From the NCBI GenBank assembly GCA_019232795.1, contig JAFANH010000006.1, positions 62,001 through 126,000 on the forward strand: DNA of 64,000 nucleotides, written 5' to 3'. Of this stretch, positions 11,263-22,228 are shown piece by piece; position 1 is the first letter of the stretch, and each line of letters starts with the position of its first letter. This DNA is from Burkholderiaceae bacterium. GTDB taxonomy: Bacteria; Pseudomonadota; Gammaproteobacteria; Burkholderiales; Burkholderiaceae_D. Below the pieces are notes generated by a model, which was not told the origin of the DNA, searched no databases, and was given only the letters and a program-made list of their open reading frames with translations. The translations under genes and the position numbers were made by a program.

Positions 11263-14200
11263 TTATTTCATGGCCAGCGTGGCTGGCGGCGTCGCCGACG
11301 ACATTGCCGGCAATGCGGCCAATGTCAGAGACATCTGCAGCTTGGTGCCGCCGTCGACCGGCGCCAGGTTGACCAGGGCCGTCGGCGCGGTCGTGTGCAC
11401 CACCGCAGTACCGACGCCCTTGACGCCTGCAAAGCCGCCCATCCAGGCCTGCGTCGCCATGCCGCCGACCACCAGCGTCACGCAGGTCGCAGCGGCAGCC
11501 ATCATCTTGACGCCGCGCCGCGCCGGCGGCAGCGCCGGTGCTTCGGCCAGCACGGCCTCGGCGCGTTCGCGCCATTCTTCGCACAATTCGCCTTTGCGCG
11601 TCATGCGACCTATCAATTCACGGGCAGCCTGCTCGGCTTCGGCTTGTTGCTGTATGCTTTGAACACGCACCGTTTCGCTTTCACGGATAGCCTCCTGCTC
11701 GCTGTGCAAACGCTGCTCCACGGCCTCCAGGGCAGCACGCTCGGCAGCCGCACGTGCCTCTTCCGCCTGGCGCACGGCTTGCTCTGCATCCAGGCGCTGT
11801 TGCAGCGAAGCGACTTCCTCGCGCTGTGCAGCCGCGCGCAGCTCGGCTTCCTGGCAAGCCTGCGCTTCGATGCGTGCGCGCTCCTGCAAGAGTTCCAGTT
11901 CCTGGCGCTGCGCTTCCAGGCGCTCGCCTTCCATGCGTGCCAGCTCGGCCGCTTCGCGTGCGTGGGCTTCCGCTTTCTCGGCGGCTTCACGCAGGATAGC
12001 TGCCTGCGCGGCGGCCTGGTCATAAGCCAATTGTTCGGCCGCCAGTTTGGCTTCGCTGACCAGGCGCATTTCGCGCTCGGTGCGCTCGCGGTCGATCACG
12101 AGCTGGGCGGCATGCTGTTCAGCCAGGGCGCGCGCTTCGGCTTCGGTACAGGCGCCGCGCTCGGCTTCGATTTTCCTGGCGATGGCCAGTTGCGCCACTT
12201 GCTCGGCTTCCTGGCGCTGCTGTTCGAGCGCCGACTTTTTCTGGATTGCGTCCAGCGTTTGCTGTTCCATTTCGGCACGCTGACGCTCGGCTTCGGCCAA
12301 TTCAGCCGCTTGCGCCGCCTTCATTTCGGCCGCTTCGGTCGCGATGCGCTGGGCTTCGTACACAGCCTTGGCTTGCGCCGCGGCCGCTTCGATCGCGGCA
12401 TGCTCGGCTTCGCGCGCCAGGCGCGCTTCGCGTTCGGCTTCTGCCGTCGCCTTCAGCAATTCCATTTGCTTCTGGTCGGCCAGCATGCGCGCTTCGGCTT
12501 CCACGCGCGCGGCTTCCTCGGCTTCGGCACGCTTTTGCAGGATCGCGGTTTCGGCCTGCTCGGCTTCGATGCGCAAGCGCTCGACGCGGTTCAATTCAAC
12601 CACGGCGCGTGCCTTTTGCAGGGCAGTCTGCGCAGACTTGCGCTGCAGGCCCATCTTGACCTGTTCCTGCACCAGCTCTATCTTGGCTCCGGCGGCTTCT
12701 GCTTCCGTCGCTTTCAAGGCATTCTGCTCGGCTTCTTCCTTGGCGCGCAGCATTTCGGCGTGTTCGTGCTCGGCCTTTTCGCGCGCTTCGGCGGCGGCCA
12801 GCGCGGCTTGTTCGCTCTCCAGCTTTTCCTGCGTGGCGCGGACGACGCGGGCCACGGCCTGGCTGCGCTTGCGCTCCATCTCGAGCTTGTCCTGCATGAC
12901 TTCGAAGGCTTGCTGCTCGCTCTTGGCGCGCTGGCGCTGCAGGCGCGCCAATTCGACCGCTTCGCGCGCTTTCAGCAGGGCTACCTGGGCGGCCTTGGCC
13001 TTCAATTCATTCTGCGCAACGGCTTGCGCCAAAGCCAGCTTGGCGGCTGCGGCTTCGGTTTCCTCGGCAGCCAGGGCGGCCTGTTCGGCTTCCTTGCGCA
13101 GGCGCAGCATTTCCACCTGTTCCTGCTCGATCGTGACGCGCGCCTCGGCCATGGCCTTGGCTTCCTCTTCGGCGCGCTGCTTTTGCAGGGCCAGCGTCAG
13201 CGCCTGCTTTTCGGCGGCGGCGCGCTCGTGTTCGGCACGTGCCAGCTCCAGCGCCTGACGTGCCTTGGCCGAAGCCATTTCGGCGGCTTGCTTGTGCAAT
13301 TCGGCTTGTTGCGCGATCTTGGTCAGCGCTTCCTGCTCGGCAGCGTTGCGGTCCGCCGCGGCTTGGGCAGCGGTACGCTCGGCTTCGGCGCGCTGGAAGG
13401 CAAACTGCTGGGCGCGCTGCTCTTCTTCGATACGGGCCTGGGCAGCCAGTTCGATCTGTTGTTCCATTTCCACGCGCAGCTTGGCTTGTGCGATAGCGCG
13501 CGCTTCCGCAGCCATGCGGGCACGCGTCTGCATTTCGGCCTGATGTTCAGCTTCCACGCGGGCCACGGCCGTGCTTTGCAACTGGCGCTCGGTCTGGATA
13601 CGCGTCTCGGCGGCGGTGCGGATGCGCTCTTCTGCCTCGGCACGCGCACGCGCGGCGGCGGCAGCTACGCTTTCGGTTTGCTCGCGGCGCTCCGCGGTTT
13701 CCTTCATCTCGGCTTCGGCACGCATGCGCGCCTGCAAGGCCTCCAGTGCGCGGCGTTCGGACTCGGCACGCGCCTGTGCCATGGCCTCGGTTTCTTTTTC
13801 TTCGGCGGCACGGGCGCGCGCTTCTTCGCGCGCCTGTGCTTCGACCGGCGCGCGCGCCAGCGTCGCTTCCAGCGCCAGGCGTTCAGCCTGCTCACGCTGG
13901 CGCGTCAGCAGCGCCACTTCCTTGTTCGCTTCCGCCACACGTTGCGCCGCCTGGCGGGCATGGCGCTCCTCGCGTTCGCGCAGGCGTGCGGCTTCCGCCA
14001 TTTCCACTTCGGCGCGGGCACGCGCTTCGGCTTCTTCCTTGGCTGCTTGCGCGGCCACATCCTTTTCCACGGCCAGCATGCGCATCTGCTCGGTTTCCTT
14101 GGCCAGGGTCTCGGCCACGCCGCTAGCGGCTTCGGCCAATTCTGTTTCCAAGGCCAGCTTTTCGTCCGCACGGCTGCGCGCTTCACGTTCGGCGCGGGCA

Positions 14201-14673
14201 CGTGCGGCGGCGGCAGCGCCGGCTTCGTTCTCTGCCTGGGTGCGGGCGCGCATTTCGGCGATTTCGCGTTCGACGGCTGCCTTGCGCGCTTCGCTGGCGG
14301 CGCTGGCCCGACGTTCGGCTTCCAGGCGGTCGCGGCTGGCGTTCAGAGCTTCTTCGGCGGTCTTTGCTTGGCGGTGCGCTTCGGCGGCGGCTTCGGCGTC
14401 AGCGCGGGCGCGGTCTTCGGCCAGCGCCTTGGCGCGCGCTTCGGCGCGGGCGCGGTTTTCGGCGGCGACGGTGGCCTTGGCTTCGGCTTCAACGCGGGCA
14501 ATCGCCTGGCGAATCGCTTGCAGGTCGACACCGGCATTGCCGGACGTGTCACCCTGCGCATGGCCGCGCGTGTTGCCAGTATTGGCACCTCTGGGCAAGT
14601 CGCTCAACATGTCGTCATGCAAGGCTGTGTCTTGCACGAAGGGATCGCTATGCACCGCTTGATTCGTTTCCAT
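11263..14673 (-). CDS. Giant coiled-coil protein with C-terminal membrane anchor, unknown function
   Basis: I do not recognise a family. The 1136-aa product starts METNQAVHSDPF after a GGAG ribosome site. Residues ~50-1040 are an almost unbroken Ala/Glu/Arg/Gln heptad coiled coil, extremely rich in AEA/ARAEAE tripeptides. Within it a long repeat can be followed by hand: EMLRLRKEAEQ recurs as EMLRAKEEAEQ 119 residues later, as ELLKATAEAE 98 residues further, and again about 119 later. Both spacings are whole heptads (17x7 and 14x7). A hydrophobic segment at ~1055-1080 (VKMMAAAATCVTLVVGGMAT) is followed by a short tail, so the rod is probably cytoplasmic and anchored at its C-terminus. It sits upstream of ppx on the same strand, 273 bp apart. 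Scaffold or cytoskeletal roles are guesses only. Confidence 0.85.
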   Translation of the reverse strand: METNQAVHSDPFVQDTALHDDMLSDLPRGANTGNTRGHAQGDTSGNAGVDLQAIRQAIARVEAEAKATVAAENRARAEARAKALAEDRARADAEAAAEAHRQAKTAEEALNASRDRLEAERRASAASEARKAAVEREIAEMRARTQAENEAGAAAAARARAEREARSRADEKLALETELAEAASGVAETLAKETEQMRMLAVEKDVAAQAAKEEAEARARAEVEMAEAARLREREERHARQAAQRVAEANKEVALLTRQREQAERLALEATLARAPVEAQAREEARARAAEEKETEAMAQARAESERRALEALQARMRAEAEMKETAERREQTESVAAAAARARAEAEERIRTAAETRIQTERQLQSTAVARVEAEHQAEMQTRARMAAEARAIAQAKLRVEMEQQIELAAQARIEEEQRAQQFAFQRAEAERTAAQAAADRNAAEQEALTKIAQQAELHKQAAEMASAKARQALELARAEHERAAAEKQALTLALQKQRAEEEAKAMAEARVTIEQEQVEMLRLRKEAEQAALAAEETEAAAAKLALAQAVAQNELKAKAAQVALLKAREAVELARLQRQRAKSEQQAFEVMQDKLEMERKRSQAVARVVRATQEKLESEQAALAAAEAREKAEHEHAEMLRAKEEAEQNALKATEAEAAGAKIELVQEQVKMGLQRKSAQTALQKARAVVELNRVERLRIEAEQAETAILQKRAEAEEAARVEAEARMLADQKQMELLKATAEAEREARLAREAEHAAIEAAAAQAKAVYEAQRIATEAAEMKAAQAAELAEAERQRAEMEQQTLDAIQKKSALEQQRQEAEQVAQLAIARKIEAERGACTEAEARALAEQHAAQLVIDRERTEREMRLVSEAKLAAEQLAYDQAAAQAAILREAAEKAEAHAREAAELARMEGERLEAQRQELELLQERARIEAQACQEAELRAAAQREEVASLQQRLDAEQAVRQAEEARAAAERAALEAVEQRLHSEQEAIRESETVRVQSIQQQAEAEQAARELIGRMTRKGELCEEWRERAEAVLAEAPALPPARRGVKMMAAAATCVTLVVGGMATQAWMGGFAGVKGVGTAVVHTTAPTALVNLAPVDGGTKLQMSLTLAALPAMSSATPPATLAMK

Positions 14674-14934
14674 ATTGGACTCCGCTAGTCGTCATCTCCG
14701 GCCCATGCATGGAAGGCAAAAAGCCGGAATTTCTTGGTGTCCATTATCAATTGGCAACTTGGAAACCAGCCGGGGAAAAGAAAGGGGTTTTCTACGCATT
14801 TTGAAGTTTTGCCTTATGGAAACGGCTTTTTAACTCGGCTCGCCCCCTGTCAGAATTGCCATATGGCATGAGCACTGGGCGCGGGTAAGATGACCTCGAA
14901 ACCGGCCCGCAAACCAATAAAAAGGGAGCGCCTC

Positions 14935-15951
14935 ATGCCCAAACCACAATTGGCGCAGGAAGATATCCCGCCCGGGGAAGCGATATATATAGAAGACCTC
15001 GCGGCGCGCCTGAAAGCCAAGATCATCAAGGACAACCCCACCGGCATCATGCGGCGCGACGCCCACCCCAAGATGCACGGCGTGGTCAAGGCCGAATTCA
15101 TCGTCGAACCCAATCTGCCTGAGGAATTGCGCGTAGGCGTGTTCGCCGAACCCAAGACCTACCCAGCCTGGATACGTTTTTCCAACCAAAACGGCACCAT
15201 CCAGCCCGATATCAAGCCCGACATCCGCGGCATGGCGATCAAACTCATGGGCGTGTCCGGCGAAAAGCTGCTCGAAGACGAGCGTGACGCGCAGACCCAG
15301 GACTTCATCGTCATCAGCACCAACGTCTTCGTGACGCGCGACGTCAAACAGTTCGACGACCTGATCAAGGCCATGACCAGCAACTTCCTGGCCATCGCCT
15401 GGTTCTTCCTCACGCACTGGCGCGTGGGCTGGAATCTGTTCAAGTCGATGAAGAAGGATGCGAATCCGCTGCAGATACGCTATTGGAGTACCGTGCCTTA
15501 TCTATTCGGCGAGGGGCGTGCGGTCAAGTATTCGGCAATTCCGAAATCGCCGGCGACCGATACTATTCCCTCACAACCTGACGACGATTTTTTGCGGCAA
15601 GCCATGACCCGGCAATTGACGGGCGGCAGCGTAGCTTTCGATTTTGCCGTGCAATTCCAGGTCGATCCCGACACCATGCCAATCGAAGACCCTGGCCGCG
15701 CATGGAGTGAAGCGGCGTCGCCATTCCGTAAGGTGGCAACTATCGTAATTCCACAGCAGGAATTCGATAGCGAGTTGCAGCGGGAATTTGGCGAGAATTT
15801 GTCGTTTACGCCTTGGCATAGTTTGCCGGTACATCGACCTCTAGGCGGCATCAGCCGGGCACGCAAAGTGGTATATCGATTGATATCGGCATTTCGACAT
15901 CAATACAACGCTGTCGCAAGGGCAGAACCGCGCGGGTGGAATATCAACTAA
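14935..15951 (+). CDS. Catalase-like heme-domain protein (y4iL-type)
   Basis: The 338-aa product resembles the small catalase-like subgroup rather than monofunctional catalase (~480 aa or more). Visible matches to the catalase core are MHGVVKAEFIVEP (the HG position of the distal histidine), TYPAWIRFSNQNG (catalase VRFS) and DIRGMAIKLMGV (DPRGFAVK). The C-terminal RPLGGISRARKVVYRLIS replaces the usual proximal Tyr segment, so ordinary catalase activity is doubtful; hydroperoxide or lipid chemistry is possible. The ATG at 14935 is chosen because AAGGGAG lies 6 bp before it; an in-frame ATG at 14890 lacks a site. It is divergent from the coiled-coil gene and close to the DyP peroxidase operon. 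Confidence 0.75.
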   Translation: MPKPQLAQEDIPPGEAIYIEDLAARLKAKIIKDNPTGIMRRDAHPKMHGVVKAEFIVEPNLPEELRVGVFAEPKTYPAWIRFSNQNGTIQPDIKPDIRGMAIKLMGVSGEKLLEDERDAQTQDFIVISTNVFVTRDVKQFDDLIKAMTSNFLAIAWFFLTHWRVGWNLFKSMKKDANPLQIRYWSTVPYLFGEGRAVKYSAIPKSPATDTIPSQPDDDFLRQAMTRQLTGGSVAFDFAVQFQVDPDTMPIEDPGRAWSEAASPFRKVATIVIPQQEFDSELQREFGENLSFTPWHSLPVHRPLGGISRARKVVYRLISAFRHQYNAVARAEPRGWNIN

Positions 15952-15960
15952 GTTACTTGT

Positions 15961-16032
15961 CGTTCCCGCGCAGGCGGGAACCCAGGTAGACGTTTAAAAG
16001 CTACCTGAATTCCCGCCTGCGCGGGAATGACG
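15961..16032. repeat. REP-like double palindrome, copy B
   Basis: This is the cleanest copy. GTTCCCGC-GCAG-GCGGGAAC and ATTCCCGC-CTGC-GCGGGAAT flank an inner inverted repeat CAGGTAG/CTACCTG. The two hairpin loops (GCAG and CTGC) are also complementary, so the whole 72 bp is one nested palindrome. It lies between the convergent catalase-like and GIY-YIG-like genes. Confidence 0.85.
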
Positions 16033-16084
16033 CGGTAGTGCGTAACTCTTAATATCATCCAATTTGGCCATTCCATTCTGGTTG

Positions 16085-16666
16085 TCATTGTCTACCCACG
16101 ATAGGATGGTGCCGATTGCGCATTGCGCTTTCAATCTTGGGGGCAATAACGTCATAGCTTTGGATGCCTTTAAGGTTAATCGTCTGAAAACGCCATTGAC
16201 GCGAAATCATCGTCTTTCGAGCCTCCAACTTCATCGCAAACGTCCTTTTTTCCAACGGAAGTTTTACGTGTTCTTTCAGCCGGCGATCAACATGCAATGA
16301 TTTGCCAATATAAATCGGCATCCATTCATTCAATTTTCCCAATTCAAGATGCGCATCTATATGCCGCTTATGCGGATTGGGTGCAAATTTAAGCTCATAC
16401 TTTTTACCGCGCCATTGGCGCTGAAATGTATCTATCCACTGATCCAAGGTTGCGAAGCCGGAATTCCGAGTGTTGACTTCAATTAAGTAGATGCCAGGGT
16501 AAGACTGCTTGGCTACCAAATCTTCGTCTAACAAGTTTCCCACCCTCTTGAACTTCATAGAGGAGGCAAGGACGTCGAATTCCTTAAGCATGTCGCTCAA
16601 CCGGCAATCGATCGCCAATATTTTCTCCAGCTCAGTTATTTTCAATTTCTCCTCTACGAAATCCAA
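16085..16666 (-). CDS. GIY-YIG-like nuclease-domain protein
   Basis: The 193-aa protein has PGIYLIEV and, about 60 residues later, MPIYIGKSLHVDRRLKEHV, matching the GIY and YIG strands plus the conserved Arg of GIY-YIG nucleases. A Glu then follows in APKIESAMRNRHHP. The GIY-to-YIG spacing is much longer than the usual 10-20 residues, so this is an insertion-bearing or divergent member. By eye the gene is clearly AT-richer than its neighbours, which suggests acquisition. The start is uncertain: the frame opens with TTG at 16666 and no ATG with a good ribosome site is seen early. It sits alone between a REP-like element and the DyP operon. Function unknown; nuclease activity is an inference. 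Confidence 0.6.
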   Translation of the reverse strand: MDFVEEKLKITELEKILAIDCRLSDMLKEFDVLASSMKFKRVGNLLDEDLVAKQSYPGIYLIEVNTRNSGFATLDQWIDTFQRQWRGKKYELKFAPNPHKRHIDAHLELGKLNEWMPIYIGKSLHVDRRLKEHVKLPLEKRTFAMKLEARKTMISRQWRFQTINLKGIQSYDVIAPKIESAMRNRHHPIVGRQ

Positions 16667-16728
16667 TCGAATATATTTTTCTGTAGCTTGCCACTCCTGT
16701 TGCTGTCAGGCCGATTTGGTATGACGGG

Positions 16729-18279
16729 TCACGTCGGATCAACCAGTCCCCTAGCAATCAACCTCAACGCCGTCAAACTAGGAATAAAAAAATACTCCCC
16801 GCCCCGCGTCTCCACCAGGCGTGGAATATTACGCACAAAGTAAGGCACGTCCTCGCTCTCAGGATCAACCGGCAGCACCGCCTTGCTCGGAAACTCCTTG
16901 TCGTGATTGCCCAGCAAAATTTCCTTGTCATTGGCTGCGCGGAAGTCGTTGCCGTAGTTGATCCATTGCTGCTGCACGAATTCGAACTGGCGGTTGATAT
17001 CGGCGTTGAGCATCATGATGACGATGCCGTGGTTGCCGCGGTCGGAACTGCGGTCGGTCGAGTCGCCGTAGGGCAGACCGCGGCGGGCGATGCGGCGGCG
17101 GTTGGCGAGTGCGCCGGGGGTATCGAAGGCACCGGGATTGCCGACGAACTGGCCGGGCAGCGCGCCGGCCTTGAGTTGCAGCGAGGCGCGCGGGTTGATG
17201 CGGCGCATGTGGGCGGCGAAGGGACAGCGTGAGCCGCTCATGTCCTGGTCGTAGGTGAAACCGTTCAGCATGCGGTCCTGTTCCTGCGGCGTGGCGGTAG
17301 CGAAGCGCTGGTCCCATTCTGCCTTGGCGGCCGCATCCGGCGCAGAGACCAAGGGCGCGCCGTTGTCGCGCCAGCGGCCGACGAATTTGGCGGCCAACAG
17401 TTCCTTGCCGCCGGGGTAGGTCTGCGCCTCGCGCTCCAGCAGTGTGTCGAAGGCATGCACGTTTTCGTGCAGCTTGCGGTACACCATGAAGGTGCCGTTG
17501 CGCGCCAGCAGTTGCGGCTGCGGCGCCGGCGGGTATTCGTGCGCTTCGTCGACGTGGCCGAGCAGGAATTCGCCGGTTGCCAGCGGCGCCCAGCTGCCAT
17601 CTGCCATTTGTTTGCCGCGTCCCTGCGCACTCCAGGGTTCTCCCGGCTGACCTTCGAACACCGGGTCGCTGATGCCGTCGGTGTAACCGAAGTGTTCCTT
17701 GGGGGTCGGCACGCCGTTTTCGAACAAGGCGTGCACGTCCTGGTAAAGCAGGTTTTGCTGGCCGTTGGGGCCGCGGTGCCCGGTCAGCAAAAAGACGCCG
17801 CTTTCCGGTTTGCCGGCCAGGGCGAGCAGCCATTGGGTGCGCACTTCCACGTCTTGCGGCGTCTTGCCGTTAATCGAAACCTGGATGTGCACGTCCTTGT
17901 CTCGGGTGACCCGGTTGGCTTGCCAGATCGGATCCCAGTTGTCCGGGTGACTGGGGCCGTTGTCGCCGAGAATGGCGCGACGCGCTTTCATACCCATGAC
18001 GAATTCGTCGGGGAAGCCGTTGAGCGAGGCACGCGGCAAGCCCAGTTCCTTGAGGCCCTGGTAGCTGAAGGCGATGTTGATGACCGTCGGCGGCGTCGCT
18101 GCTCCCTGCTCCCAAATAACGGCGTTGGTCACCTCGGCCGCCACGGCGGCGACGAAGGCGCGCCCTTTTTCACCGTCGCGGATGTTGAAGAACACATAGC
18201 GCGCGAACAAGTAGCCTCCGTGCGCGCTGGCACGTATGACGTCGGCCTGGATGTCGGTCAGATCGAGCGGTTGCGTCAC
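16729..18279 (-). CDS. DyP-type peroxidase
   Basis: The 516-aa heme peroxidase of the dye-decolorizing family carries the signature GxxDG as G198-Y-T-D-G202 (HFGYTDGISDP), whose Asp acts in H2O2 cleavage. A likely proximal heme ligand is H357 in CPFAAHMRRINPR, and a downstream Arg-containing GIVIMMLNADINRQFEFVQ completes the core. No signal peptide is seen. The frame extends about 120 codons upstream, but that part overlaps the neighbouring gene; the GTG at 18279 overlaps the upstream stop as GTGA and gives VTQPLDLTDIQ, a typical DyP beginning. It is the last gene of an operon with two paralogous unknown proteins. The physiological substrate is unknown. Confidence 0.88.
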   Translation of the reverse strand: MTQPLDLTDIQADVIRASAHGGYLFARYVFFNIRDGEKGRAFVAAVAAEVTNAVIWEQGAATPPTVINIAFSYQGLKELGLPRASLNGFPDEFVMGMKARRAILGDNGPSHPDNWDPIWQANRVTRDKDVHIQVSINGKTPQDVEVRTQWLLALAGKPESGVFLLTGHRGPNGQQNLLYQDVHALFENGVPTPKEHFGYTDGISDPVFEGQPGEPWSAQGRGKQMADGSWAPLATGEFLLGHVDEAHEYPPAPQPQLLARNGTFMVYRKLHENVHAFDTLLEREAQTYPGGKELLAAKFVGRWRDNGAPLVSAPDAAAKAEWDQRFATATPQEQDRMLNGFTYDQDMSGSRCPFAAHMRRINPRASLQLKAGALPGQFVGNPGAFDTPGALANRRRIARRGLPYGDSTDRSSDRGNHGIVIMMLNADINRQFEFVQQQWINYGNDFRAANDKEILLGNHDKEFPSKAVLPVDPESEDVPYFVRNIPRLVETRGGEYFFIPSLTALRLIARGLVDPT

Positions 18280-18995
18280 AGCGCGGCCTCCTGTTGCACG
18301 TTGCGTTGCTTGTCCATGATGTATTGGCCCGGTTCCCAAGTGGGGCCTTGCAGATTGGTCGGCTGCACGCGGGCGATGAAGGCGCGATAAGCTTTCTTCA
18401 GTTCTGCTGACGGGATGCCTTGGTGTTCGACGGCGAAGCGCGCGAATTCCTGCTTGAGGTAAAGGCCTTTCAGTTGCTCTTCCAGCGGTTCGTCGTTGGA
18501 ACCGACGAAGAATAGCGTCACCGGCAGTTGGCATTTCTTGATATAGGCGGAAAAGGTGTTGGCGTCGTTCACCTGATCGAAGCCATAGCAGTGCTGCCAG
18601 ACGTCCTTGATTTCCGCTGTAATGGCATTCCACATGCCGAGCAGGTATGTGTCGAGGTCACCATGAAAATTCGAGGAAAACACCAGGTATTTCGATTGCA
18701 GCCTGTCTTGCGCAGGCAATACGCCGACCCTGAGCGTGTTCGGCACCACGGGCAGAAAGTCGGTGACGGTATCGAGCGCGCCCGCGCTCGGCAGGGATTC
18801 GGTATAGACGTCGTCGAGCACAAAGAAGCGGCACAGATAGGTTTGCGGCACTTTCGCCATCGGGCTGTTTTGCAACCGGTTCCATTGTTCGAGCCGGTCG
18901 CGCACCAGATCGGCACGCGAGACAGTGCCAACCTTGTCGTTCCTGATCGGTGACAGCACGGACAGTGCATAGGCGTTTCCGCTGACGTTGGGCAT
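18276..18995 (-). CDS. Unknown protein, paralog of its upstream neighbour, DyP-linked (copy 2)
   Basis: I know no established function. The ATG at 18995 has AGGAGCG upstream and gives a 239-aa protein, MPNVSGNAYALSVLSPIRND. It is a divergent paralog of the product of 19024-19704. The N-termini share the pattern GxAYAxxVxxPIR, and the cores share YLVFSSNFHGDLDTYLLG versus YMLFHSNFNGSWDQYVDS, followed in both by a W/Y-rich stretch and a conserved YI segment. Its stop overlaps the DyP start (GTGA), so translation of the two is coupled. No signal or membrane segment is obvious. A role in peroxidase substrate delivery or assembly is inference from context. Confidence 0.75.
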   Translation of the reverse strand: MPNVSGNAYALSVLSPIRNDKVGTVSRADLVRDRLEQWNRLQNSPMAKVPQTYLCRFFVLDDVYTESLPSAGALDTVTDFLPVVPNTLRVGVLPAQDRLQSKYLVFSSNFHGDLDTYLLGMWNAITAEIKDVWQHCYGFDQVNDANTFSAYIKKCQLPVTLFFVGSNDEPLEEQLKGLYLKQEFARFAVEHQGIPSAELKKAYRAFIARVQPTNLQGPTWEPGQYIMDKQRNVQQEAAL

Positions 18996-19023
18996 AGGAC
19001 GCTCCTGATTCGAATAATTTTTG

Positions 19024-19704
19024 CTACTCGACTGCCGCGACTTGCTCCTGTTCGGCCATCTTTCTTTTCTCGCGCAGCAAGCGCTTTTCGACCTGCGTCG
19101 CGGCCATGCTGACGATGGGCGTGGGCCGCATTTCGCCAAGATCATGCTGGAGAGCACGCAGCAAGCCGTTGTATTGCTTGAGAAAGACCGTGTCGTCCGC
19201 TTCCATGCCCCAGAGCGCATCGAATTCGATCAATTTCTGCTTGAGGCTTTTGGCCGATTTGACGTCGTTCGACGTCGCCAGCGGATAGGCGCTGTAGTAA
19301 TGCGTGGTTTCGATCTGGTTATAGCGGATGTAATGATGAAAGGGCGTCAACGCCACCGAATGCGGGTAGCGGATATTCCATTTCCAGAACATGTCGAGGC
19401 CGCTGGGAATGGCGAAGGTGAAAGAGTCGACGTACTGGTCCCAGCTGCCGTTGAAATTGCTGTGGAACAGCATGTAGCTGTATTGGAGATTTTCTTTCGG
19501 CTGCTTGGGGTCGAGACGCGGGAACTGGTTGCGGCCGATGATGACCCAGCGCGCATAGTGGATCAGCGAGAGTGTGATCAGGCCCTCAAGCGTGGAAGGC
19601 ATTTTTTGCGCCGCCCAGAAAATCAGCTTGTTGAGCCACACCGTGTACCAGCGGATCGGCGTGATCACGTTCATTGCATAAGCTTTGCCCGCGATATTCG
19701 ACAT
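19024..19704 (-). CDS. Unknown protein, first gene of the DyP-linked operon (copy 1)
   Basis: The 226-aa product starts MSNIAGKAYAMNVITPIRWY after a strong GGGAGGGG ribosome site. Family-like features are HYARWVIIGRNQFPRL, YMLFHSNFNGSWDQYVDS, and a His/Tyr-rich ETTHYYSAYPLATSNDV stretch that could bind a ligand or metal. The C-terminus (~195-226) is charged and helical. It is a paralog of the next gene, 28 bp downstream, and heads the three-gene operon ending in the DyP peroxidase. The function is unrecognised; the first ~60 residues include hydrophobic segments that may contact membrane lipid. Confidence 0.75.
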   Translation of the reverse strand: MSNIAGKAYAMNVITPIRWYTVWLNKLIFWAAQKMPSTLEGLITLSLIHYARWVIIGRNQFPRLDPKQPKENLQYSYMLFHSNFNGSWDQYVDSFTFAIPSGLDMFWKWNIRYPHSVALTPFHHYIRYNQIETTHYYSAYPLATSNDVKSAKSLKQKLIEFDALWGMEADDTVFLKQYNGLLRALQHDLGEMRPTPIVSMAATQVEKRLLREKRKMAEQEQVAAVE

Positions 19705-19992: not shown

Positions 19993-21150
19993 CTAGCGCG
20001 GCGCCGAGCCGCCGGTCATGCCGGCCAGCTTGGCGGCGTACAAGTCATGCTGCTGGCTGTTCGGGCTGTTTTCCATGGCGATGCTCAACTGCCTGCGCGT
20101 CTCGCTCAGGTTGCCGAGATAGTAGTTGGCCAGCGCCAGCCAGAAATGGAATTGGTGATTGTAGGAAGCGCGATTGACTTCCTTGGTAAATTCGTTTCTG
20201 GCGGCCTGGAAGTCGCCGTCGTGCATGGCGGTCAATCCACGGTTGAAGAAATAAAACGGCGGATAGGGTTGCAGTTCCCTCAAATGCCGGTTCAGCACTT
20301 GCGCTTCCTCGCCGCGGCCCAGTGTCTTCAGCACCTGGACCTGGTTCGACAATGCCAGAACATTGTCGGGCTCGTGGTTCAAAACGCGCTGAAGCACCAG
20401 TTCCGCCTGCGCCGGATTTTGATGACGCATGTAGACGACGCCCAGCGTATTGTAGGCTCCCATATAAGTAGGCGCCTCCTGTATGGCGGCACGCACCCAC
20501 CAATAGGCATTGTTCAAATCGCCGTGGGTCAAGGCTTCCGCCGCACGGTTATTCAGGTACATGGCGACGATGACGTCTTCGCCTATGTCTTCCATCCATT
20601 CGTTATGGAGATTCTCTCCCGCCACAAAGTCGATGATGCGCGCCGCTTCACTCTCGGGCGCTGCGGCATGTGCATGCCCGCCTGCACCGACTGTCAGATT
20701 GACATGACCGATTAGGAAATCGATATTCTGGTTGCGGTCCCAGATTTCACCGTTGAGGACGCTGTGGAACTGAACCGGCAAATGCATCTGCTTGGCATAT
20801 GCTGCCGTCATGATGGTCAGGGACAGGCAATTGCCGGCTTGCGCGTGAAAAGTATCGGCAGCGTCGAGCGTTTTGGTCGCGTCGTAGGAAAACTTCAGGT
20901 GGCTGTCGTGGTAGAGCCCGTTGATCAGCGCGAAAATCTTGCCATCCGGGTAGATCTTGTGGGCGATCTCGTCGTCGAGATAATGCCGCATCTCGTCGCT
21001 GACCGTGAATATCCGGCCGGGATCGATCTGTTCCGTGGGCGCGGAAAACAGCGCATCGTCGAACAGGCTTTGCGGCTGCGACTCCTTGAGCGGCGCAGTC
21101 GAACATGCGGCCAGCAACACGCTCAGAAGCAAGCCTGCCAGGACTTTCAT
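19993..21150 (-). CDS. Lipoprotein with transglutaminase-like and TPR domains
   Basis: The ATG at 21150, with GGAGGG before it, gives MKVLAGLLLSVLLAACSTAP, a clear lipobox with Cys16, so the 385-aa protein should be lipid-anchored in the envelope. An upstream extension of the frame is rejected. Residues ~100-170 resemble a transglutaminase-like (papain-fold) core: QAGNCLSLTIMTAAYAKQ supplies the Cys and FLIGHVNLTVGAG a His. Residues ~230-360 are tetratricopeptide repeats (NTLGVVYMRHQNPAQAELVL, FNRGLTAMHDGDFQAARNEF). It is divergent from the phosphopantetheinyl transferase gene. It probably processes or scaffolds envelope proteins; the catalytic Asp is not certain. Confidence 0.75.
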   Translation of the reverse strand: MKVLAGLLLSVLLAACSTAPLKESQPQSLFDDALFSAPTEQIDPGRIFTVSDEMRHYLDDEIAHKIYPDGKIFALINGLYHDSHLKFSYDATKTLDAADTFHAQAGNCLSLTIMTAAYAKQMHLPVQFHSVLNGEIWDRNQNIDFLIGHVNLTVGAGGHAHAAAPESEAARIIDFVAGENLHNEWMEDIGEDVIVAMYLNNRAAEALTHGDLNNAYWWVRAAIQEAPTYMGAYNTLGVVYMRHQNPAQAELVLQRVLNHEPDNVLALSNQVQVLKTLGRGEEAQVLNRHLRELQPYPPFYFFNRGLTAMHDGDFQAARNEFTKEVNRASYNHQFHFWLALANYYLGNLSETRRQLSIAMENSPNSQQHDLYAAKLAGMTGGSAPR

Positions 21151-21496
21151 CACACCCTCCTGCAGTCGGCGCCGCATAATCGACAATTCATCATACACCC
21201 GTTGCGCGCCGCACGCACCCGCCCATTCCGCCCCATTGCCCCAGGTTTGCCTGTCTTTTCCGGCCAATCGGCTCATCCCTGGCAAGCATAAAAGCCTGCG
21301 TCAAGCAATACACGTAAATACAACAAACTGGTATGGTCGCAGGCATTACCATAGGGAGTTGAACCCTATTCGTGAATCAGGGACCGTGATCGCGTTCTGA
21401 ATCGATGATGCTCATATCCCATTTCGCCACATCGACACGCCCGGTAGAATCCATCGAATGGTGCGGCGCAGTATCGCGCGGCTATCGGGGGGGCAT
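21151..21496. other. Divergent intergenic region, no gene recognised
   Basis: This 346-bp region separates the lipoprotein and phosphopantetheinyl transferase genes and must hold both promoters. I see no convincing small gene, tRNA, terminator or repeat. A local base shift (AT-richer around 21300-21350) would suit a promoter, but no clear -35/-10 pair stands out. Confidence 0.4.
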
Positions 21497-22228
21497 ATGA
21501 GTTGCGCCAGTTCTCTACAGCACCACGAAGTCCACGTCTGGCAAGTCAATCTGGACGATGCCGTATGGGATAGATTTGCCGGTGTGCTGTGCACGAACGA
21601 AAAGCAAAAGGCGCAGCGCTATCGTACGCAATCCCTGCAAAATCGCTATGCGCGCTGCCGCAGTGCTTTGCGCATGATCCTGGGGCAATATGCGAATCAG
21701 GCGGCTGCCGAGCTGCACTTCGATTATGGCGAATTCGGCAAGCCTACCCTGCCCAACCACCGCCTGCATTTCAATGTTTCGCATTGCGGCAGCCAAGGTT
21801 TGATCGCGGTTTCCCTGCACGAGGTCGGCATCGACCTGGAATTGATTGCCAAGACCAACGTCGATCTGCCGGGTTTGATCGATCTGGTTTGCCATCCCGA
21901 GGAAAAGCGGATGCTGGCCGGCCTGATCGACACGCAAAGATCCGAAATGTTTTACCGCCTATGGACGCAAAAGGAAGCGTATTGCAAGATGCGCGGCATC
22001 GGCCTGCAACAGACGCTTTCGGCCTTGCACCTCGAAAACAGCGCGAATCCCGATGTGCTTCAGATTCGCGGCGAATCGAACCAGCCCGCTTCACGCGGCT
22101 TTATCTACAATCTTGATCTGCTGGAAGACCATGCCATCAGCGCCTGCCTGGCGACCGATGATGCACGCATCGCCACATTTCACGCCGGCGACGACAGCAG
22201 CATCGGCGCACGCCCCTGGCACCGATAG
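21497..22228 (+). CDS. Sfp-type 4'-phosphopantetheinyl transferase
   Basis: It transfers 4'-phosphopantetheine from CoA to a serine of carrier proteins. At 243 aa it has the pseudo-dimeric Sfp length. The Mg-binding motif is G111-I-D-L-E115 and the second motif is W156-TQ-K159-E160-AYC-K164. The N-terminal NRYARCRSALRMILGQY and LHFNVSHCGSQGLIAVS are also typical. The ATG at 21497 (MSCASSLQHHE) is preferred; an in-frame ATG 39 bp upstream is possible and neither has a strong ribosome site. No PKS/NRPS gene is in the window, so the carrier protein (fatty-acid ACP or a distant megasynthase) is unknown. Confidence 0.88.
   Translation: MSCASSLQHHEVHVWQVNLDDAVWDRFAGVLCTNEKQKAQRYRTQSLQNRYARCRSALRMILGQYANQAAAELHFDYGEFGKPTLPNHRLHFNVSHCGSQGLIAVSLHEVGIDLELIAKTNVDLPGLIDLVCHPEEKRMLAGLIDTQRSEMFYRLWTQKEAYCKMRGIGLQQTLSALHLENSANPDVLQIRGESNQPASRGFIYNLDLLEDHAISACLATDDARIATFHAGDDSSIGARPWHR

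What the first reader, a model, noticed from the sequence alone, without database searches (positions are those of the whole stretch)
14935..19704. Peroxide-handling island: two tandem paralogs of unknown function coupled to a DyP peroxidase, next to a catalase-like gene
Genes 19704-19024 and 18995-18276 encode divergent paralogs (shared GxAYAxxVxxPIR start and FxSNFxGxxDxY core). The second overlaps the DyP gene by GTGA, so synthesis is tightly linked. A catalase-like protein lacking the usual proximal heme segment lies 2.5 kb away on the opposite strand. Two paralogs kept beside a peroxidase suggest a heteromeric partner, substrate carrier or lipid-interacting subunit. I know no described function for them.
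Basis: partly seen in the sequence, partly recalled or inferred. Interest (0 to 1): 0.62.

Follow-up and report, generated by a model that had tools for sequence, protein, structure and literature searches.

The report
DyP peroxidase with two partner proteins
Two unnamed sister proteins travel with one kind of bacterial heme peroxidase wherever we looked, and this trio keeps swapping a catalase-like protein for a cytochrome P450 (sometimes fused into one chain), which suggests an undescribed two-step enzyme complex that may make oxidised lipids.

Summary
A (19024-19704) and B (18276-18995) are true paralogs (profile-profile E 3.7e-18). B overlaps the DyP start by GTGA. The catalase-like protein (Cat) does keep its proximal heme segment.

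A is beside, or fused with, a DyP in 117 of 117 testable loci in Pseudomonadota and Acidobacteriota. A second heme enzyme is nearby in 79 of 121 loci: Cat in 41, a P450 in 38, never both. The DyP tree needs at least 11 Cat/P450 switches. Both occur fused to DyP. 34 of 37 aligned locus P450s lack the acid of the acid-alcohol pair. Cat relatives away from A/DyP sit beside RoxA-like genes (the family of Pseudomonas oleate 10S-dioxygenase) at 19 of 40 sites.

Best reading: DyP-A-B passes a (probably lipid) hydroperoxide to an interchangeable second heme enzyme, like fungal dioxygenase-P450 and coral catalase-lipoxygenase fusions. Complex and swap are well supported; lipid substrate and direction (synthesis or detoxification) are inferred. 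Against: three P450-locus genomes also carry a remote Cat, three P450s keep the acid, two Cat relatives pair with LodA oxidases.

The parts
19024..19704 (-). gene A, 226 aa; partner protein with motif HYARW ... FHSNFNGSWDQYVDSF; possible amphipathic segment at about residues 19-48
   Evidence: no Pfam, NCBIfam or PDB sequence match
18276..18995 (-). gene B, 239 aa; paralog of A; model resembles a dimeric alpha+beta barrel over residues 6-165
   Evidence: no Pfam, NCBIfam or PDB sequence match
18276..18279 (-). GTGA overlap of B stop and DyP start
16729..18279 (-). DyP-type peroxidase, 516 aa, GTG start; GxxDG (D201), proximal His H357 in RCPFAAH, and the Arg cluster RRRIARRG are present
14890..15951 (+). 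catalase-like protein (Cat), 353 aa; R56, H59, R96, R325, Y329, R336 kept; distal Thr->A58 and Asn->S143
   Evidence: cAOS residues from PMC5617202 passages

Best explanation
A, B and DyP are subunits of one heme enzyme complex (well supported by linkage and fusions, not shown physically). It works in series with a second heme enzyme that is either the catalase-like protein or a P450, most of these P450s lacking the acid used to activate O2 (well supported as a swap). Inferred mechanism: A and B, B being barrel-like and some variants having hydrophobic or transmembrane segments, hold the DyP at the membrane and present a lipid, probably an unsaturated fatty acyl chain. The DyP forms (or activates) the lipid hydroperoxide. 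The neighbouring Cat or P450 then rearranges that hydroperoxide, without an electron-transfer partner, to an epoxide, allene oxide, diol or aldehyde. Shown here: paralogy, strict linkage, fusions, repeated Cat/P450 exchange, heme-site residues. Inferred: physical complex, lipid substrate, order of steps, synthesis rather than detoxification.
For: (1) A is beside or fused with DyP in 23 of 23 A-bearing genomes of an even 398-genome sample of the window's phylum, window included, and in 11 of 11 of a 297-genome Acidobacteriota sample. (2) Fusions: P450-B-A-DyP single chains (L121, L122, L181-L184), A-DyP (L124), two A/B-type domains in one chain (L173, L176, L178, L189, L267, L268, L270, L271), DyP-Cat (L176, 900 aa), DyP-P450 (L267, 957 aa). 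(3) Cat in 41 (40 by the Cat profile, L126 by Pfam only), P450 in 38, both in 0 of 121 loci; at least 11 switches on a 107-row DyP tree. (4) Of 19 genomes with neither nearby, 5 hold a Cat elsewhere (one of them about 6 kb from the DyP) and 6 a Pro-type P450, none both. (5) At the I-helix acid position 33 of 37 aligned locus P450s have Pro and 1 Ala; the heme Cys motif is kept. (6) Cat keeps 5 of the 7 heme-site residues listed for coral cAOS. (7) Of 40 Cat sites of the sample that lack A/DyP beside them, 19 sit next to a RoxA-like diheme gene; PA2077, of that family, is the oleate 10S-dioxygenase (PMC4496055 passages). (8) Recurrent neighbours in P450 loci: a GST-like cluster in 15, a C92-peptidase cluster in 6 (one member of each scanned), patatin and FadL in 2.
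Against: No enzyme of this kind has been assayed. DyPs are known as H2O2 peroxidases and my searches listed no report of lipid oxygenation by one. Three P450s at or near the loci keep Asp at the acid position (L106, L265, L266), and L265 and L266 lie directly behind the DyP. Three Nitrosomonas-clade genomes with the P450 locus also carry a strong Cat elsewhere. 7 of 19 searched genomes with neither partner nearby have neither anywhere (drafts). Two Cat relatives are beside or fused to a LodA-like oxidase, whose known relatives make H2O2 (activity recalled), so the Cat family is not lipid-only. 21 of 40 Cat sites have no RoxA-like gene within two genes. Patatin and FadL occur in only 2 related loci. 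The model of A is poor (pLDDT 68, pTM 0.42). In the window the Cat gene is on the opposite strand.
Confidence: 0.5

Rival explanations
1. Lipid-peroxide detoxification: DyP-A-B is a membrane-docked lipid hydroperoxide reductase and Cat or P450 disposes of the same hydroperoxides, so the system repairs rather than makes oxidised lipids.
For: DyP catalytic residues of a peroxidase are intact; Cat and P450 have heme sites compatible with hydroperoxides; the same gene map would result.
Against: The Cat/P450 swap and the occasional phospholipase, GST and FadL genes fit a dedicated product better; hydroperoxide isomerases give reactive products (general knowledge).
Confidence: 0.2
2. H2O2 island: DyP and the catalase-like protein simply remove H2O2; A and B are structural subunits.
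For: PF00199 match, distal His and proximal Tyr kept, two Cat relatives next to LodA-like oxidases.
Against: Recurrent replacement of Cat by a P450 is hard to explain by H2O2 removal; the distal Thr and Asn positions of cAOS are changed; 19 Cat relatives pair with RoxA-like genes.
Confidence: 0.1
3. Same two-step complex, but the substrate is a terpenoid such as a carotenoid, hopanoid precursor or polyisoprenoid.
For: RoxA itself cleaves rubber (PMC4496055 passage); beta-carotene is among DyP substrates (PMC10820274 passage); hosts include hopanoid makers (general knowledge).
Against: Patatin and FadL neighbours in two loci point to acyl chains, and the cAOS and DOX-CYP analogies use fatty acids; no terpenoid gene was among the few recurrent neighbours that I scanned.
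Confidence: 0.15

Closest known systems
Fungal DOX-CYP fusions (linoleate diol synthase / PpoA family)
   Same: A heme oxygenase and a self-sufficient P450 fused in one chain, the second isomerising the hydroperoxide of the first (PMC13049297 passages, abstract passages included)
   Different: The oxygenase there belongs to the peroxidase-cyclooxygenase superfamily; here it is a DyP with A/B subunits (no An_peroxidase match in the window DyP)
Coral AOS-LOX and HPL-LOX fusions (catalase-related cAOS/cHPL)
   Same: A catalase-like heme domain coupled to a lipid oxygenase; R64, H67, R102, Y353, R360 equivalents kept (PMC5617202 passages)
   Different: Partner is DyP, not lipoxygenase; distal Thr66 and Asn137 replaced by Ala and Ser
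Pseudomonas oleate diol synthase pair PA2077/PA2078 (RoxA-like diheme proteins)
   Same: Bacterial two-step heme system making and converting a fatty-acid hydroperoxide (PMC4496055 passages); Cat relatives neighbour RoxA-like genes
   Different: Diheme c-type, not DyP; A/B proteins were not sought there
DyP-type peroxidases, class V/C (for example DrDyP, 8re3)
   Same: Asp of GxxDG, proximal His and Arg cluster (PMC10820274 passages)
   Different: A/B neighbours and a second heme enzyme; NCBIfam cut-off not reached (78.9 against 100.5 bits)
PDB 3e4w (recalled: catalase-related protein of a Mycobacterium)
   Same: Only PDB sequence match of the Cat protein at E up to 1 (E 5.8e-11)
   Different: Aligned only over residues 87-312; named 'putative uncharacterized protein' in the listing

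Membership tests
DyP-type peroxidase | GxxDG distal motif, proximal His, distal Arg | tested here: met
   D201, H357, R394-R400 cluster invariant in 13 rows; alignments to 8re3 and 7anv; which Arg is the distal one was not settled
DyP-type peroxidase | Family profile cut-offs | tested here: inconclusive
   Pfam DyP_N 37.5 against 27.5 bits met; Dyp_perox_C 15.1 against 20 and TIGR01413 78.9 against 100.5 not reached
DyP-type peroxidase | H2O2-dependent dye oxidation | not testable with these tools
   needs protein
Catalase superfamily (PF00199) | Profile score above cut-off | tested here: met
   26.4 against 25 bits, E 4.8e-6
Catalase-related allene oxide synthase / hydroperoxide lyase | Heme residues R64, H67, R102, Y353, R360 | tested here: met
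   R56, H59, R96, Y329, R336 invariant in 11 rows; residue list from PMC5617202; equivalences assigned by motif and spacing, no coral sequence was aligned
Catalase-related allene oxide synthase / hydroperoxide lyase | Distal Thr66 and Asn137 | tested here: not met
   A58 invariant, S143 nearly invariant, equivalence by eye
Catalase-related allene oxide synthase / hydroperoxide lyase | Conversion of fatty-acid hydroperoxide | not testable with these tools
   needs protein
Fungal DOX-CYP fusion | Oxygenase of the peroxidase-cyclooxygenase superfamily | tested here: not met
   No PF03098 match in the window DyP at E up to 1
O2-activating P450 monooxygenase (the partner P450s of related loci) | Acidic residue of the I-helix acid-alcohol pair | tested here: not met
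   Pro in 33, Ala in 1, Asp in 3 of 37 aligned locus P450s; fragments in L064 and L081 not aligned; the window itself has Cat, not P450
CYP74 clan (the partner P450s) | Sequence kinship to CYP74 | tested here: inconclusive
   The best PDB matches of two P450s shown are ordinary bacterial P450s (lists capped at 60); no CYP74 reference was aligned
Dimeric alpha+beta barrel superfamily (B protein) | Fold | tested here: inconclusive
   B model pLDDT 80; VIA Z 7.7, rmsd 3.2, 96 aligned to 3gz7; Foldseek had no E below 0.001

The most novel reading that the evidence does not exclude
A DyP-type peroxidase, assisted by a new family of barrel-like subunits (A/B), has become a membrane-associated lipid oxygenase that hands its hydroperoxide to a fused or docked hydroperoxide isomerase. 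That would be an independent bacterial invention of the oxylipin cascade, in which a catalase-like enzyme and a P450 are interchangeable second-step modules.
Probability: 0.35. Interest if true: 0.9.

Novelty: new variant of a known kind. Interest (0 to 1): 0.72.

Why it matters
The physiological role and biological substrates of DyPs remain unclear (stated in the introduction of PMC10820274, passage). This locus names constant partners, a second enzyme and a candidate product class for one DyP branch, so the question becomes directly testable. If lipids are the substrate, it adds a route to bacterial oxylipins and shows repeated non-homologous replacement of a catalase-like by a P450 module, a pairing known separately from corals and from plants and fungi.

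Tried and rejected
Encapsulin cargo: I saw no such gene among the few neighbours that I scanned with Pfam, but made no targeted search. A or B as a copy of the DyP N-terminal domain: hhalign of A1 and A2 against the DyP alignment gave probability 0.3. A solved relative of A or B by sequence: none at E up to 10. Fold of A: the model is poor and its Foldseek list meaningless. The top Foldseek rows for B (tubulin) are chance: probability 0.2-0.3, rmsd near 18. The GIY-YIG-like ORF 16085-16666 as a system part: no relative in the 16 first-fetched loci. Strict genome-wide Cat/P450 exclusivity: rejected, 3 of 30 P450-locus genomes also have a Cat. Cat as a purely lipid-linked family: rejected because of the LodA neighbours. 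CYP152-type Arg-Pro (recalled) in the P450s: the change is acid to Pro, with Thr kept in most. L106's P450 (opposite strand, lower score, canonical Asp) was left out of the Cat/P450 counts but kept in the acid-position count; P450 fragments in L064 and L081 were counted as P450 but not aligned. L126's catalase was counted as Cat although only Pfam, not my Cat profile, matches it; without it the count is 40.

Literature (listings and starts of abstracts). No listed paper is about this locus by title or abstract start, and long hit lists were shown only in part; 'dye-decolorizing' together with 'oxylipin' occurs in 0 papers of the held library. Passages only were read of PMC4496055, PMC13049297, PMC5617202 and PMC10820274.
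Full report
WHAT IS THERE. On the minus strand, A (19704-19024, 226 aa), B (18995-18276, 239 aa) and a DyP-type peroxidase (18279-16729, 516 aa) follow each other; B stop and DyP start overlap as GTGA. A and B match nothing in Pfam or NCBIfam at E up to 1 and no PDB sequence at E up to 10 (B alone; A's profile). They are homologous to each other (BLASTP E 4e-9; hhalign probability 99.0, E 3.7e-18 over 196 columns). The draft genome (87% complete) shows one copy of each. On the plus strand, 0.8 kb beyond the DyP, lies a catalase-like gene (Cat, 14890-15951). A GIY-YIG-like ORF between them has no relative in the first 16 loci.

LINKAGE. (i) P0002 in 60 genomes of relatives and 398 of the phylum: 10 and 9 hits, own genome counted in both and G049 in both. 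The 16 other genomes were fetched; all 16 and the window carry A-B-DyP in the same order and strand. (ii) Profile A1 in genome contigs: 366 relatives, of which the best 80 were returned (L041-L120). DyP follows A-B wherever the contig continues; L054, L074, L079 and L097 end too early. (iii) Profile A1 in the even 398-genome sample: 23 genomes, window included. DyP is next to or fused with A in 23 of 23 (and G228 from its short locus L141): 7 with Cat, 13 with P450, 3 with neither. A sample of Acidobacteriota gave A in 11 of 297 genomes and DyP beside it in 11 of 11 (L111; G757 as L255, the same place as plasmid locus L123; L263-L271): 4 Cat, 3 P450, 4 neither. Pooled: window, L025-L120 without five that repeat a genome (L046, L057, L087, L090, L093), 6 plasmid loci, L172-L184, L189 (found through its Cat) and L263-L271, in all 121 loci. 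4 are untestable; DyP is on the same strand within 1.1 kb of A, normally with B between, in 117 of 117. The pooled set is not random: 80 of its loci were the nearest relatives. Whether this DyP branch also occurs without A was not tested.

INTERCHANGEABLE SECOND HEME ENZYME. In the 121 loci Cat occurs in 41 (40 by profile, L126 by Pfam only), a P450 in 38, both in 0, neither in 42, several of these cut by contig ends. L106, whose P450 is on the opposite strand and canonical, is counted as neither. On a quick DyP tree of 107 rows (38 Cat, 34 P450, 35 neither) at least 11 switches between Cat and P450 are needed (simple model, long branches make some placements unsure). Genome-wide: of 19 searched genomes with neither nearby (L058 was not held), Cat is found in 5, one of them about 6 kb from the DyP, and a P450 in 7 (six with the Pro motif, one canonical); none has both, 7 have neither. 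Of 30 Cat-locus genomes 2 have a P450 match, one canonical (G486) and one weak at 76 bits whose motif was not read (G468). Of 30 P450-locus genomes 3 have a strong Cat elsewhere while each holds a single A-B pair. So exclusivity is strict at the locus, not in the genome.

FUSIONS. Single chains P450-B-A-DyP of about 1410-1620 aa (L121 Sulfitobacter, L122 Pararhizobium, L181-L184), A-DyP (L124 Sinorhizobium), two A/B-type domains in one chain (L173, L176, L178, L189, L267, L268, L270, L271), DyP-Cat (L176, 900 aa) and DyP-P450 (L267, 957 aa). In the single chains and in L125 the B part is seen by eye or by weak scores only; in L179 and L180 the part before A scored nothing. Hydrophobic peaks typical of membrane spans occur before A in P0006, P0007 and P0008 and in 3 of 91 free B proteins; 14 of 94 free A proteins reach 1.6, the eight listed at residue 27; the window's A reaches 1.24 only. 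Membrane association is therefore suggested by sequence for some variants and only guessed for the window.

CATALYTIC SITES. DyP: GxxDG Asp (D201), proximal H357 and the Arg cluster are invariant in 13 rows. Cat: R56, H59, R96, R325, Y329 and R336 are invariant in 11 rows, with A58 and S143 in place of the cAOS Thr and Asn; the coral cAOS residue list is from PMC5617202, the equivalences are mine. P450s: 37 aligned locus P450s have Pro (33), Ala (1) or Asp (3: L106, L265, L266) at the position of the acid; a P450 away from a locus (L235) has Glu. The heme Cys is kept in the rows printed. No reductase domain was found in the two fused chains scanned; ferredoxin genes were not sought.

WHAT THE PARTNERS SAY. 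All strong Cat sites of the 398-genome sample without A beside them were read, 40 sites: a RoxA-like diheme gene is the direct neighbour in 19 (L185-L188, L190-L204) and absent within two genes in 21 (L205-L225) (six confirmed by Pfam PF21419). In that family PA2077 is the oleate 10S-dioxygenase that makes a fatty-acid hydroperoxide (PMC4496055 passages). One Cat in L176 is beside an An_peroxidase gene. Against a lipid-only view, L209 and L210 have Cat beside or fused to LodA-like proteins, and L207 and L216 have a molybdopterin enzyme nearby. P450 loci add a GST-like gene cluster (15 loci), a C92 peptidase cluster (6), and patatin plus FadL (2 related loci).

READING. Constant pairing plus fusions argue for a complex. 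Two unrelated heme enzymes that replace each other probably do the same job; the one precedent that I know for such a pair is fatty-acid hydroperoxide isomerisation (CYP74-type and fungal P450s against coral catalase-related enzymes; PMC5617202 and PMC13049297 passages). The first step then falls to DyP-A-B, as lipoxygenase, cyclooxygenase-like DOX or RoxA-like proteins do elsewhere. That step is inference: no DyP is known to me to oxygenate lipids, and a peroxidase that consumes hydroperoxides would give the same gene map. I put about 0.9 on complex and swap, 0.5 on the lipid hydroperoxide cascade as stated.

STRUCTURE. B: pLDDT 80, pTM 0.69; VIA Z 7.7, rmsd 3.2, 96 aligned residues with 3gz7, and many dimeric ferredoxin-like entries at Z 6-7, a level that the tool warns may be only a common arrangement. 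A: too uncertain to place.

Noticed in passing
L185-L188, L190-L204 (Cat sites): Relatives of the catalase-like gene stand directly beside a RoxA-like diheme gene in 19 of 40 sites without A/DyP beside them; this Cat-RoxA pairing looks like a second two-gene system worth its own study.
   Followed up: partly
L209:566-2956 and L210:2852-5809: Cat-like domain beside or fused to a LodA-type (lysine oxidase family) protein.
   Followed up: no
L176:4269-7295: Animal-type heme peroxidase (PF03098) next to a second Cat gene, beside the A/DyP-Cat locus of the same genome.
   Followed up: no
L265:4060-5475 and L266:2640-3917: P450 directly behind A-DyP that keeps the canonical Asp-Thr pair, unlike the other locus P450s.
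   Followed up: partly
window 16085-16666: 193-aa ORF with weak GIY-YIG similarity between DyP and Cat, without relatives in the 16 first loci.
   Followed up: partly
window 11263-14673: 1136-aa Ala/Glu/Arg-rich coiled-coil-like ORF with a C-terminal hydrophobic stretch beside the Cat gene (by eye; strand opposite to Cat).
   Followed up: no
window 21458-22228: ORF that by eye resembles a 4'-phosphopantetheinyl transferase (recalled motif, not searched).
   Followed up: no
window 19993-21285: TPR protein with a lipoprotein-like start (by eye) just upstream of A, same strand (Pfam TPR matches).
   Followed up: no
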